From: Flavobacteriales bacterium
GTDB lineage: Bacteria; Bacteroidota; Bacteroidia; Flavobacteriales_D; Crocinitomicaceae
DNA length: 64,000 nt
Assembly: GCA_947462255.1 (NCBI GenBank)
Contig: CANHOA010000010.1
Coordinates: 52,644-116,643 of the forward strand
Reading direction: 5' to 3'
This document shows, piece after piece, positions 58,581 through 64,000 of this stretch (the stretch's first letter is position 1; each line of letters begins with the position of its first letter). The notes beneath the pieces were generated by a model. That model was given only the letters and a program-made list of their open reading frames with translations, made no database searches and had not been told where the DNA came from. The position numbers and the translations under genes are program-made.

Positions 58581-58662
58581 CCTAACGCAATAAACCTGCG
58601 CATATACAACCAAATAGGTGTGCTTGAGGAAGGTTTGTAGCGTGTATAAGTAAGTTATATGC
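58581..58662 (+). other. Left boundary of cassette array; attC/attI-like degenerate inverted-repeat region
   Basis: cctaacgcaataaacc...ggtttgtagcgtgtataagtaaGTTATATGC: TAAC/GTTA, CGC/GCG and AAACC/GGTTT pairings; GTTATATGC is the exact complement of GCATATAAC at 59622-59630. Confidence 0.4.
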
Positions 58663-58682
58663 AATTGACCATTGTAACCATT

Positions 58683-59618
58683 ATGAAAGAAATACTATTT
58701 AGTTTTGTTCTATGCTTTTTTAACTCTGAAATAAATGCACAGGAGATTGGAGAGATTAGAGAAGTGAAATTAAAACTGATGGACATTCCTTTTAGTGGGG
58801 ATGCAATTCAGCCAAATTTTATTAATGATAATACAAGTGAAATAATTTCATTCAATCATATGGATTGGCTCGATAAACACGTTTCTCTTTATGATTTTTT
58901 TCATAGATACAGGGACTCTTGTAGCGAAATTGACTATGTATTTAATGTTACCATGATCTTTATTCCAAAGGAGCAGTTTACACACGTTCGGTATGAAGGA
59001 TATATTCCAACCGGAGAAATTCTAAATCAATGGGTTCTTACAAGTATAATTAGAAGTGAAACTGAATATGAAGAATTAATCGCTTACAACGATGATTCAT
59101 TTAACGATGTGATTTCAAGAGTAGAGGGTGACCTAAATAAAGATGGTATAATTGACCTTGCCATTGTAAAACAAGACACCTTACATGAAAAAGCCCCATA
59201 TAAATTGGAAGTATTCTTTGGTCAAGAAAACGGAGATTTAAAATTGATAGTTTCTACTACAAAAGCAATTCAACCACAATTTCCAAATGGAAGAGAGCAT
59301 CATATGTGGGGCAACGGATTTGGAGGATTGAGTATTCATAATGGAGTTCTGTGGATCGAAACGGGATTTATTAGGGGGCACATGGAACATAAGTTTAGAT
59401 ATCAAAACAATAGTTTCGAATTAATTGGATATAGCTATGTGAACGCGGACTTTGGTACAATTAAAATTGTTGATTATAATCTTTCCACAGGAAAAAGAAT
59501 TGAAAAGGAAGGCGAAATAAGTTCAGATGAATATATCATCACTGTGGACAAAGTAATTAAACTTAATCCATTACCTAAATTGGATGAATTTGAACCATAC
59601 GCTAATGATTTATTTTAA
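58683..59618 (+). CDS. Cassette 1: secreted protein of unknown function
   Basis: MKEILFSFVLCFFNSEINAQEIGEI signal peptide; VEGDLNKDGIIDLAIVKQD resembles an FG-GAP/VCBS-type Asp-rich motif. Start moved from 58659 (inside the core site) to 58683. Confidence 0.7.
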   Translation: MKEILFSFVLCFFNSEINAQEIGEIREVKLKLMDIPFSGDAIQPNFINDNTSEIISFNHMDWLDKHVSLYDFFHRYRDSCSEIDYVFNVTMIFIPKEQFTHVRYEGYIPTGEILNQWVLTSIIRSETEYEELIAYNDDSFNDVISRVEGDLNKDGIIDLAIVKQDTLHEKAPYKLEVFFGQENGDLKLIVSTTKAIQPQFPNGREHHMWGNGFGGLSIHNGVLWIETGFIRGHMEHKFRYQNNSFELIGYSYVNADFGTIKIVDYNLSTGKRIEKEGEISSDEYIITVDKVIKLNPLPKLDEFEPYANDLF

Positions 59619-59623
59619 TAAGC

Positions 59624-59759
59624 ATATAACAGCTGTCATGGCGCCAGCCCTTTAATCTTGCTTCGAAACAACGATTAATTTGAAAGAAAATAATTTTAAC
59701 TTCGGACTAACGATTTATTTAAAGAGTCGGGCCGAGCGCCAGGCAGCGAAACGTTAGGG
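59624..59759 (+). other. attC site 1 (136 bp)
   Basis: ATATAACAGCTGTCATGGCGCCAGCCC...GGGCCGAGCGCCAGGCAGCGAAACGTTAGGG; outer arms complementary. Confidence 0.88.
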
Positions 59760-59787
59760 GTAAGTGGCGGACAAATCGCAGTAGACA

Positions 59788-60270
59788 ATGAACATCGTAA
59801 AAAAAATAAAAAGACTTTTCAAAAAACCATGGACAGACGCACTCGCTGCTAATGTTAGCTTTTATCCAGACAAAATAATTGTGCAGACACTTGACTATAC
59901 TGACGGACCTTGTGTAATAACGAATAAATTTACGATTCTCGCCGCGGACGTTTCGCCAAGTGTTCTCGGACAGGCATTAAAAAAACATTTGAGTTTAACC
60001 GAACATAGTCAAGAATATCATCAAAATAGTGACGCTTGGAACTCCTACAAAAAAGCTGCTGGTTTTAAAACAAACAAAGAAACATACAAAGACGCGCGAC
60101 TTGTGTCATGCGATCAGCGGAATACTCAAATTACTTTAACGCCGACAGAAAATCGTTACAATACAGGCTACGACTATCGGCCCGACTTGGACATAAAAAT
60201 TCCACAGACAATTTCAGACGAAGACTTAGGACTTCATTTGACAAAAGCTCGTGATCTGTCAAATGGCTAA
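59788..60270 (+). CDS. Cassette 2: CdiI-like (DUF1436-type) contact-dependent growth inhibition immunity protein, putative
   Basis: C-terminal DARLVSCDQRNTQITLTPTENRYNTGYDYRPDLDIKIPQTISDEDLGLHLTKA resembles the DUF1436 CdiI pattern; by-eye call. Confidence 0.5.
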   Translation: MNIVKKIKRLFKKPWTDALAANVSFYPDKIIVQTLDYTDGPCVITNKFTILAADVSPSVLGQALKKHLSLTEHSQEYHQNSDAWNSYKKAAGFKTNKETYKDARLVSCDQRNTQITLTPTENRYNTGYDYRPDLDIKIPQTISDEDLGLHLTKARDLSNG

Positions 60271-60314
60271 CAGCGGACGCGTAAACGAAACGCACCTGTG
60301 TGCCGCCACCATAC

Positions 60315-60413
60315 CCCTAACAGCGGTCTCGCGCCATTTTTTTGCGCAGTAATGCTCAAATGCTATATTTGGACTTAGCAAAAAAACGGACGCAAGGCCG
60401 CAAAACGTTACCA
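60315..60413 (+). other. attC site 2 (99 bp)
   Basis: CCCTAACAGCGGTCTCGCGCC...ACGGACGCAAGGCCGCAAAACGTTACCA; TACCCCTAA left end complements TTAGGGGTA at the cassette start (59754). Confidence 0.85.
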
Positions 60414-60430
60414 CCAATTGTAAAGAGACA

Positions 60431-62123: not shown

Positions 62124-62128
62124 GTAAT

Positions 62129-62788
62129 ATGAAGTACTTTATAACCATCGTATTATTTTTTTTCTGCTTCAAGATGATTGGGCAAAATAGATGCGTGATT
62201 AAATTGATAGATTCATATTCATTTGAGCAAATAAATCTGGATCATTCTTTCAAAATAAATAAGAAACATTATTCAATTGATTCAATAAACAATTTCATCA
62301 TTATTGAAAAACCTTTTGGTAGACAACTTACAATTTCAAGTAATCTTTATGAATTGTTTCAAGAAAAAATTGACTTTAAAAAGCATTTTTCAGATACTTT
62401 AAAGGTTCAATTAAAACCAAATGAGACACTAATAAGAAAGGGTTATAATGAAATCTGGAATGCAGATACTATATTAATTGACACTGTTGAGTTTAACAAT
62501 TTACGATCTTTAGAAAGAAAGATTTTATCATATCTAAATTATTTATCTGTAATTGACGAAATGTGTGATAATGGAATGTGTAATTATTCAAATACATACA
62601 GATATCAAATCAATTTTGTAAAAACAGATTCTGTGTATATGATTGAAAAAATCGTAAAGTTGCAACCGAGGGATTATAAATGTGACGAACTAGATAAACA
62701 TTTGCAACTATTACAATCGATTTTCCCCAAATTTAATTTAAGAGAAGAAGCAGAAAATTTAAGTTTACAATTCACAATTATGATTTAA
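62129..62788 (+). CDS. Cassette 5: secreted/exported protein of unknown function
   Basis: MKYFITIVLFFFCFKMIGQNRCVIKL signal peptide; the ORF-track start at 62054 lies inside attC4, so start moved to 62129. Confidence 0.72.
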   Translation: MKYFITIVLFFFCFKMIGQNRCVIKLIDSYSFEQINLDHSFKINKKHYSIDSINNFIIIEKPFGRQLTISSNLYELFQEKIDFKKHFSDTLKVQLKPNETLIRKGYNEIWNADTILIDTVEFNNLRSLERKILSYLNYLSVIDEMCDNGMCNYSNTYRYQINFVKTDSVYMIEKIVKLQPRDYKCDELDKHLQLLQSIFPKFNLREEAENLSLQFTIMI

Positions 62789-62793
62789 AATAC

Positions 62794-62929
62794 ACATAAC
62801 AGCTGTCAAGCACCAACCCTCCCAATCCTACTTCGAAAGAACGAAAAATTTGAAAGAAAATATGTTTAACTTCGAAACTATAATTTATTTAAAGAGTCGG
62901 GCCGAGCGCCTGGCAGCAAACCGTTAGGC
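62794..62929 (+). other. attC site 5 (136 bp; close relative of attC1)
   Basis: ACATAACAGCTGTCAAGCACCAACCCT...AAAGAGTCGGGCCGAGCGCCTGGCAGCAAACCGTTAGGC; TACACATAA complements TTATGTGTA at 62118. Confidence 0.9.
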
Positions 62930-63047
62930 CCAATATTACAAAGACAGTAAAGATTAATTAAGTCTTAACAGTCAGCTTCAGTCAAATGACAATATGTCAG
63001 ATAAATTGAAGTGGAATAAAAATTGATTAACATTTCATAAAAAGAAA

Positions 63048-63572
63048 ATGAAGAAGAACCGATTAACGATAACTAGCTCCAGTATTGTGTCATATGCTGG
63101 GATTAAAACGCTTGAAAATAAGATTGATCCTTATACAAGAATGTCATTAGGACTTCTTGCAACAGTAGGATTATCACTTTCAGAAAATCAAACAACCAGA
63201 AATATTGGATTAGGGCTTGGTATAGCATCTTTGCTACAGTTATTAGACATAAAAAAAGGAGGGAAAATAACGCGGAATGATTCAAATATTCAATTTTATA
63301 TTTTAGACGAGAATCAAGGCGTGACAATTTTAGAGCCTGGTCAAACGCCAAGTAATTCCATCGATGGATTAACATTCAAAGGTTTAAATGGTGTTTTTAA
63401 AGTGTCTGATGGTGTATACGTTGAATTAGGAACGGACAATAGTATCAATTATTCGTTTGGATTTGGGAAGCTAATAAATCAGAATTTAAGAAGTGGGGGC
63501 TATAAGTCAAAACAATGGGTTGACCAGCAAGCCGATCTTCGTTGGAAGGAATTACACAGTAAATCAATTTAA
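63048..63572 (+). CDS. Cassette 6: protein of unknown function
   Basis: 174 aa MKKNRLTITSSSIVSYAGIKTLENKIDPYTRMSLGLLATVGLSLSENQTTRNIGLGLGIASLLQLLDIKKGG...; bounded by attC5 and attC6. Confidence 0.7.
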   Translation: MKKNRLTITSSSIVSYAGIKTLENKIDPYTRMSLGLLATVGLSLSENQTTRNIGLGLGIASLLQLLDIKKGGKITRNDSNIQFYILDENQGVTILEPGQTPSNSIDGLTFKGLNGVFKVSDGVYVELGTDNSINYSFGFGKLINQNLRSGGYKSKQWVDQQADLRWKELHSKSI

Positions 63573-63578
63573 TACTGG

Positions 63579-63710
63579 GCATAACAGCACCTACCCAAAA
63601 GGCGGGGTTTCGTGTTCCAAAGATAGTGTTGTGGTTAATCAAATATTAGTTTTTCAAATCAAGCTTTGTGGTAAATGTCCCGCCCTTCGGGTAGCTGCGG
63701 AACGTTATGC
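63579..63710 (+). other. attC site 6 (132 bp)
   Basis: GCATAACAGCACCTACCCAAAAGGCGGG...CCCGCCCTTCGGGTAGCTGCGGAACGTTATGC. Confidence 0.92.
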
Positions 63711-63750
63711 CTCATTGTAGGGCGACACAAAAAACAGACAAAAATCAAGA

Positions 63751-64000
63751 ATGAAGAAAGCTATAATAATTGGGGCGACATCTGGAATAGGTAAAGGACT
63801 AGCAAAACATTTGGCTGACAACAATTATAAAATTGGCTTGACAGGAAGACGTGTTGAATTACTAAATGAATTAAAAAACGAGAATCCAAATTTTTATATA
63901 AAATCATTTGACATCAATGACACAAATGTTGTTGGACAGAAATTAGATGAACTTACGACAGAACTTGGCGGACTTGATTTATTAATTATTAGTTCGGGCA
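63751..64000 (+). CDS. Cassette 7 (partial): short-chain dehydrogenase/reductase
   Basis: ATGAAGAAAGCTATAATA... translates MKKAIIIGATSGIGKGLAKHLADNNYKIGLTGRRVELLNELKNENPNFYIKSFDINDTN...GGLDLLIISSG; runs off right edge. Confidence 0.85.
   Translation, partial: MKKAIIIGATSGIGKGLAKHLADNNYKIGLTGRRVELLNELKNENPNFYIKSFDINDTNVVGQKLDELTTELGGLDLLIISSG

What the first reader, a model, noticed from the sequence alone, without database searches (positions are those of the whole stretch)
58655..64000. Integron gene-cassette array on a Bacteroidetes chromosome, continuing past the window
Six attC-like sites of 99-136 bp, each starting TAACAGC and ending (C)GTTANNN with complementary inner arms, are separated by single ORFs all on the + strand. 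Spacing between an ORF stop and the next site is as short as 5 nt (59618 to 59624; 62788 to 62794). The rest of the window has no such sites. This is the architecture of an integron cassette array. Most encoded proteins look unfamiliar, so the array is a reservoir of uncharacterised accessory functions.
Basis: partly seen in the sequence, partly recalled or inferred. Interest (0 to 1): 0.88.

Follow-up and report, generated by a model that had tools for sequence, protein, structure and literature searches.

The report
Integron cassette array, unusual integrase
This is a real array of mobile gene cassettes of the integron type in a Bacteroidota bacterium, and comparison with its relatives indicates that the enzyme moving the cassettes lacks the protein part thought essential for every integron, so a whole bacterial class appears to run integrons that standard searches overlook.

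Summary
Six hairpin sites (59627-63707) separate seven single-ORF cassettes. A covariance model built only from other species' sites re-finds all six. Each cassette's first bases (TTANNN) pair with its own end. Cassette 7 recurs nearly identically in two other species in unrelated contexts, with homology starting exactly at G^TTA. At the orthologous locus of a relative the cassettes are entirely different.

Following it further gave three new things. (1) The array starts at an attI-like site (58563-58654), repeated on two other contigs of this genome. One copy lies directly behind a 279-aa tyrosine recombinase gene that leads a second array. (2) This recombinase family sits upstream of, and points into, such arrays across Bacteroidia, including cultured strains and a Chryseobacterium plasmid. 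It lacks the ~41-residue IntI-specific domain (I2 helix). Canonical IntI occurs in only 1 of 395 Bacteroidia genomes sampled. (3) The attC sites mostly lack the extrahelical bases that I2 docks, and carry a one-sided 4-nt spacer bulge instead.

Best reading: a Bacteroidia integron class with an I2-less integrase, a new variant of a known kind. Recombination by this integrase is inferred, not shown.

The parts
58563..58654 (+). attI-like site at the head of the array; recombination point G58654^T58655
   Evidence: 88% identical over 95 bp to the sequence directly behind the recombinase gene on contig C17 of the same genome, third copy on C23; copies in 22 of 100 genomes of the relatives sample, own included
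58655..59753 (+). cassette 1: ORF 58659-59618 (319 aa, no Pfam match)
   Evidence: starts TTATATGC, ends GCATATAAC in its own attC
59627..59756 (.). attC1 (bottom strand is the folded strand)
   Evidence: CM R1 104 bits, R2 E=1.2e-16
59754..60407 (+). cassette 2: ORF 59788-60270 (160 aa), CdiI-family immunity protein (PF07262, 32.7 bits, above cut-off)
   Evidence: ends pair 6/6
60318..60410 (.). attC2 (short middle)
   Evidence: R1 66.5 bits, R2 E=1e-6; fold z=-3.8
60408..61379 (+). cassette 3: ORF 60431-61240 (269 aa, no family above cut-off)
   Evidence: ends pair 6/6
61257..61382 (.). attC3
   Evidence: R1 83 bits, R2 E=1.2e-17; fold z=-3.4
61380..62117 (+). cassette 4: ORF 61426-61938 (170 aa, unknown)
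   Evidence: ends pair 5/6
61996..62120 (.). attC4
   Evidence: R1 117 bits, R2 E=7.7e-20
62118..62923 (+). cassette 5: ORF 62126-62788 (220 aa, unknown)
   Evidence: ends pair 6/6
62797..62926 (.). attC5 (79% identical to attC1 over 145 bp)
   Evidence: R1 105 bits, R2 E=1.4e-17
62924..63704 (+). cassette 6: ORF 63048-63572 (174 aa, unknown)
   Evidence: ends pair 5/6
63582..63707 (.). attC6
   Evidence: R1 123 bits, R2 E=8e-22; fold z=-4.2
63705..64000 (+). cassette 7, cut by the contig end: ORF from 63751, short-chain dehydrogenase (PF00106)
   Evidence: near-identical cassette in two other species at three places, homology starting exactly at G63704^T63705

Best explanation
The window holds an attI-led integron cassette array without its own integrase gene. 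It is served in trans by a tyrosine recombinase encoded elsewhere in the genome (contig C17, 279 aa), which heads a second attI-led array. Proposed mechanism: (1) the bottom strand of each attC folds into a hairpin; (2) the integrase binds the R (TAAC/GTTA) and L (GC..GC) boxes and cuts at G^TTA; (3) it recombines the site with attI, or with another attC, so cassettes are excised as circles and inserted behind attI. The integrase belongs to a Bacteroidia-wide group that lacks the IntI-specific I2 domain. The attC sites correspondingly mostly lack extrahelical bases. Strand choice and polarity may instead come from the one-sided 4-nt spacer bulge on the R' side. Shown by comparison: the cassette unit, the G^TTA breakpoint, the hairpin covariation, attI behind the integrase gene, the absence of the I2 domain, and the statistical link of integrase and arrays. 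Inferred: that this integrase performs the reaction, that it acts on single-stranded attC, that it serves the window array in trans, and how polarity is set.
For: Cassette unit: over 60 adjacent site pairs, cassette start and cassette end match 4.40 of 6 variable bases, against 2.12 +/- 0.16 when shuffled and 2.20 within the same site. Mobility: cassette 7 lies in four unrelated upstream contexts, with homology starting exactly at GTTATGCC; in two copies it ends at its own attC's GTTA. The orthologous locus in G041 (neighbour gene 95%, attI 97% identical) contains none of cassettes 1-6. Hairpin: 90% of cells paired against 37-50% for slid controls, covariation 0.54 against about 0.1. attI: the same site lies directly behind the recombinase stop in own C17 and at least eight relatives. 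Link: in 17 loci found by the recombinase alone (not by attC), all 36 attC sites lie 3' of the gene and in one orientation. In a 399-genome phylum sample, 36 of 40 genomes with the close integrase have attC, odds ratio 22, p=5e-14. In the genus the count is 22/22, p=9e-6. No alternative integrase: canonical IntI in 0 of 100 relatives and 1 of 395 Bacteroidia. I2 absence: the KGxKxR to HxLRH distance is 64-67 aa in nearly all attC-linked recombinases against 106 in IntI; the alignment gap covers IntI1 Y220. Extrahelical bases: 3 of 3 class 1 attC fold with them on the 3' arm; 48 of 63 sites here have no one-sided bulge and 5 of 63 have one on that arm.
Against: No experiment. The integrase-array link is genomic association. 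18 genus members have attC but no close integrase found, although many are fragmented. The window's own array has no integrase beside it, so action in trans is assumed. Pairing counts come from alignments fitted to the structure. Extrahelical-base counting used minimum-energy folds of trimmed arms and only three control sites, two of them identical; window sites attC1, 2 and 5 do fold with a one-sided T bulge on the other arm. Bottom-strand folding alone is not significant for attC4 and attC5.
Confidence: 0.86

Rival explanations
1. Ordinary CALIN: a cassette cluster deposited by a canonical IntI that has since been lost or lies in the missing 5% of this genome.
For: CALINs are common (PMC9024848); the window array has no integrase beside it; canonical IntI is common in other classes of the same phylum sample (110 of 399 genomes).
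Against: Canonical IntI in 0 of 100 relatives and 1 of 395 Bacteroidia, while 55 of 100 relatives have these sites; in the phylum sample these sites are not enriched with canonical IntI (odds ratio 0.47) but strongly with the I2-less family (22); attI sits behind the I2-less gene. Model R2 does not hit class 1 attC or flanks of canonical IntI genes.
Confidence: 0.07
2. The sites recombine as double-stranded DNA by a normal Xer-type two-strand exchange carried out by the same I2-less integrase; the hairpin is a by-product of inverted binding sites. (This is a rival to one step of the mechanism, not to the array being an integron-type array.)
For: The integrase lacks I2, and Xer proteins, which lack I2, are described as not adapted to single-stranded sites (PMC4792948, PMC7790495); extrahelical bases are mostly missing.
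Against: The whole ~20-bp arm covaries (19 of 19 arm pairs with changes on both sides) although only the R and L boxes are conserved in sequence, which points to selection on a folded strand; the crossover at one box only matches integron attC.
Confidence: 0.15
3. The six sites are a dispersed palindromic repeat (REP/MITE-like) between unrelated genes.
For: Sites also occur singly elsewhere in the genome (C4, C20).
Against: The units between sites carry matched ends, move with exact boundaries, and lie in one orientation behind an integrase.
Confidence: 0.01

Closest known systems
Sedentary chromosomal integron / CALIN (canonical IntI, attI, attC)
   Same: Tandem single-ORF cassettes in one orientation, attC folding on the bottom strand, crossover at G^TT, cassette ends complementary across the cassette, attI at the array head.
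   Different: Integrase lacks the IntI-specific domain; integrase gene reads toward the array with attI directly behind its stop codon; attC mostly without extrahelical bases and with a one-sided spacer; several attI copies per genome.
IntI4/IntIA of Vibrio cholerae (PDB 2a3v)
   Same: Best Foldseek match of the predicted model (E 1e-17, 27% identity); shared SPxDxL-like C-terminus.
   Different: About 42 residues missing between query residues 180 and 202 (2a3v 180-242), where I2 lies.
Xer recombinases / archaeal XerA (NF040815)
   Same: No I2; scores 223.9 against a cut-off of 220 with NF040815, which NCBI names 'site-specific tyrosine recombinase/integron integrase'.
   Different: Not a chromosome-dimer resolvase by context: the genome has its own XerC and XerD (C9, C2), and this gene is followed by attI and cassettes.
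Integron of Salinibacter ruber M1
   Same: The only complete integron in Bacteroidetes proper reported by IntegronFinder 2.0 (PMC9024848).
   Different: That tool requires the IntI-specific profile, so the arrays described here would at most be called CALIN.

Membership tests
Integron cassette array | Tandem ORF-attC units in one orientation | tested here: met
Integron cassette array | attC: R and L boxes with foldable, covarying arms on the bottom strand | tested here: met
   three of six window sites fold individually at z < -3
Integron cassette array | Cassette start complementary to the 5' end of its own attC | tested here: met
   60 pairs, far outside the shuffles
Integron cassette array | Site-specific cassette mobility at G^TT | tested here: met
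   comparative only:
Complete integron | attI next to an integrase gene | tested here: met
   met on C17 of this genome and in relatives; the window array has attI but no integrase gene
Complete integron | Integrase with IntI-specific additional domain (TIGR02249 above cut-off) | tested here: not met
   215 against 265 bits; domain absent
Complete integron | attC with extrahelical bases on the 3' arm | tested here: not met
   5 of 63 sites against 3 of 3 controls; few controls
Complete integron | Pc promoter driving cassettes | not tested
   Bacteroidota promoters are not covered by the scanning tool
Complete integron | Integrase-dependent recombination in vivo | not testable with these tools
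   needs an experiment

The most novel reading that the evidence does not exclude
Class Bacteroidia carries its own widespread lineage of integrons whose integrases never had, or lost, the I2 domain, and which recombine folded attC sites without extrahelical bases by another polarity signal (the one-sided spacer). This would be either a living relative of the pre-I2 stage of integron evolution or an independent solution.
Probability: 0.6. Interest if true: 0.92.

Novelty: new variant of a known kind. Interest (0 to 1): 0.84.

Why it matters
Integron surveys and tools define the integrase by its extra domain (PMC2426708, PMC9668308), so a class with a different integrase would look integron-poor. 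IntegronFinder 2.0 found only one complete integron in Bacteroidetes proper (PMC9024848). Current theory holds that integrases gained single-strand attC recombination by acquiring the I2 helix, which docks extrahelical bases, and names a chicken-and-egg problem in how I2 and attC arose (PMC4792948, PMC7790495). A natural I2-less integrase tied to attC-like sites mostly lacking extrahelical bases makes that problem directly testable. It also reveals a large, unexamined pool of mobile genes in Bacteroidota, at least once on a plasmid.

Tried and rejected
Rfam scan: no attC family at gathering thresholds. A simple consensus pattern found only one of the six sites, so covariance models were used. 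Per-site shuffling z-scores are weak for sites with long AT-rich middles. Canonical IntI in the genome: rejected; three tyrosine recombinases only, two being XerC/XerD-like. Joining the broken array to contigs C5 or C23 through the rest of cassette 7: no match. Mapping internal attI binding sites and promoters was not resolved. PADLOC on the cassette proteins: nothing convincing. Literature searches found no description of an I2-less integron integrase or of Bacteroidia arrays of this kind; the library lacks most subscription journals and preprints.
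Full report
WHERE IT LIES. The window is bases 52,644-116,643 of contig C10 of a 2.67-Mb, 42-contig genome, 95% complete. The contig ends where the window ends, so cassette 7 is cut by an assembly break. One protein 86% identical to the genome's integrase carries the database name 'integrase [Crocinitomicaceae bacterium]'. That suggests the family but is not a taxonomic assignment.

THE SITES ARE REAL. Six sites of the form TAACAGC...GC.GC.AAACGTTA were confirmed by alignment and covariance models. R1 was built from the six sites. 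R2 was built from 51 matches in nine related genomes and contains no site of the window. R2 still finds all six window sites (E 1e-6 to 8e-22); the next best hit elsewhere in the window has E 0.07. Over the relatives' sites, 90% of cells pair, against 37-50% when the partner is slid, and all 19 arm pairs show changes on both sides. That alignment was fitted to the structure, so the absolute value is somewhat flattering; the slid control is the fairer yardstick. R2 does not hit class 1 attC sites or flanks of canonical intI genes.

THE UNITS ARE CASSETTES. In an integron the cut falls at G^TT, so a cassette begins with TTRNNN left over from the upstream site and carries the matching 5' box at its own end. 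In the window this holds for every complete cassette: TTATATGC/GCATATAA, TTAGGGGTA, TTACCACCA, TTAGCAG, TTATGTGTA, and TTAGGCCCA with one mismatch. Over 60 adjacent pairs from the window and related loci the match is 4.40 of 6, against 2.12 +/- 0.16 when shuffled and 2.20 between the two arms of one site.

THE CASSETTES MOVE. Cassette 7 (a short-chain dehydrogenase) is present in G050 (twice) and G041 with nearly identical DNA. Upstream of GTTATGCC the four copies share nothing recognisable; from that G onward they align base for base. In the two G050 copies homology ends at the GTTA of the cassette's own attC. At the orthologous locus of G041 (same neighbour genes, the adjacent FAD-linked oxidase 95% identical, attI 97% identical) none of cassettes 1-6 is present.

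THE ARRAY HAS AN attI, AND attI POINTS TO THE INTEGRASE. The 92 bp before cassette 1 are nearly the same as the sequence that follows a 279-aa tyrosine recombinase gene on contig C17, where four further cassettes follow. A third copy, on C23, heads a cassette of 3.3 kb with five ORFs. Thirty copies from this and related genomes align; nearly all end ...AG^TT before unrelated cassettes (the copy in L164 reads AAGTAAAT). Behind the integrase gene the site lies within tens of bases of the stop codon, on the same strand. So the genome has one such integrase and at least three attI platforms. Further attC-like sites lie on C28, C5, C4 and C20.

THE INTEGRASE IS NOT AN IntI BY THE USUAL DEFINITION. 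It scores 215 bits against a cut-off of 265 with the integron-integrase family. Against IntI4 (PDB 2a3v) the alignment breaks at residue 180 and resumes at 2a3v residue 243, about 42 residues short. The distance from KGxKxR to HxLRH is 64-67 aa in nearly all recombinases found next to these arrays (69 in Aquiflexum), 106 in eight canonical IntI from the same phylum and 72 in the genome's XerD. In the alignment with IntI1 of plasmid R100 the gap swallows residue Y220, which Escudero et al. place in the I2 domain (PMC7790495). The model (pLDDT 85, pTM 0.62) matches 2a3v best in the PDB, so it is an integron-type fold minus the insert. In the tree, canonical IntI form one clade (100/100) and the attC-linked Bacteroidia recombinases lie outside it, most of them in one clade (100/99); a second group contains Arundinibacter and Aquiflexum. 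Long branches make the deeper order unsafe.

THE LINK IS GENERAL. Searching public genomes with the integrase alone gave named loci. In the 17 with attC hits, all 36 sites lie downstream of the gene and on the same strand sense. These include Algoriphagus ornithinivorans DSM 15282, Flavobacterium aciduliphilum DSM 25663, Arundinibacter roseus, Zunongwangia mangrovi and Algibacter onchidii; the weakest hits among the 36 have E near 0.008. A plasmid of Chryseobacterium sp. SNU WT5 carries the same layout, with four attC-like sites behind the integrase. In a 399-genome phylum sample 36 of 40 genomes with the close integrase have these sites (odds ratio 22, p=5e-14), whereas canonical IntI shows no positive link to them. 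In the window's genus all 22 genomes with the integrase have sites, against 18 of 39 without. Genomes are related, so these p-values overstate independence; the adjacency and orientation do not depend on them. Canonical IntI is present in only 1 of 395 class genomes.

HOW THE SITES DIFFER FROM CANONICAL attC. Read on the bottom strand, the relatives' sites have TAACG, a 4-nt T-rich spacer, then the GC.GC arm; on the other arm the spacer is absent in 49 of 51. Class 1 attC (aadA1, cmlA5, aadA22) fold with extrahelical bases on the 3' arm in 3 of 3 cases. Here 48 of 63 have no one-sided bulge, 11 have one on the 5' arm and 5 on the 3' arm. Only three controls were used, two identical in sequence, and the folds are of trimmed arms; this is a lead, not a proof. 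It fits an integrase without the I2 helix that docks those bases.

MECHANISM. Shown: unit, breakpoint, fold, attI, integrase adjacency, absent domain. Inferred: that this integrase cuts and joins these sites; that it uses the folded bottom strand; that the one-sided spacer gives polarity; that one integrase serves the window array in trans. Lack of the I2 helix might leave two-strand attI x attI exchange efficient, which could explain several attI copies per genome and the attI-like sites found inside one array of G031.

CARGO. Cassette 2 encodes a CdiI-type immunity protein and cassette 7 a short-chain dehydrogenase; the others match no Pfam family above its cut-off. Other cassettes of the genome encode ankyrin, Rce1-like, carboxypeptidase-regulatory and SPFH/GYF proteins. 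PADLOC gave nothing convincing.

NOVELTY. No paper in the searchable library describes this. The library lacks most subscription journals and preprints, so an existing report cannot be excluded. It is filed as a new variant of a known kind: it works like an integron, but a defining feature of the integrase was tested and not met.

Noticed in passing
L012:11300-12822 (G000:C17): Three tandem ORF6N-type genes with near-identical C-termini and variable middles lie directly upstream of the integrase gene, each starting inside the end of the previous one.
   Followed up: no
L156:342-3780 (G000:C23, - strand): attI followed by a single 3.3-kb cassette with five ORFs (one an SPFH/GYF protein), unusually large for an integron cassette.
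   Followed up: partly
L179 (G031:C26), 3086, 7988, 10123, 12279: Four divergent attI-like sites inside one cassette array, as if attI-bearing circles had been inserted between attC sites.
   Followed up: partly
L178:2944 (G050:C3): Cassette 7 heads an array at a place with no recognised attI or attC (...GGGTTATATATAAG^TTATGCC), possibly an off-target insertion.
   Followed up: partly
L285 (NZ_CP041688.1), about 12943 and 15036: The same ORF-less GC-rich unit of under 200 bp follows both the attI and an attC on the Chryseobacterium plasmid, like a minimal cassette present twice.
   Followed up: no
phylum sample: Canonical IntI is common in other classes of the phylum (110 of 399 genomes) but nearly absent from Bacteroidia.
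   Followed up: yes
L128, L131, L134, L135: Contigs carrying the integrase often end within a few hundred bases behind it, as expected where attI is repeated; this will make MAG surveys underestimate complete integrons.
   Followed up: no
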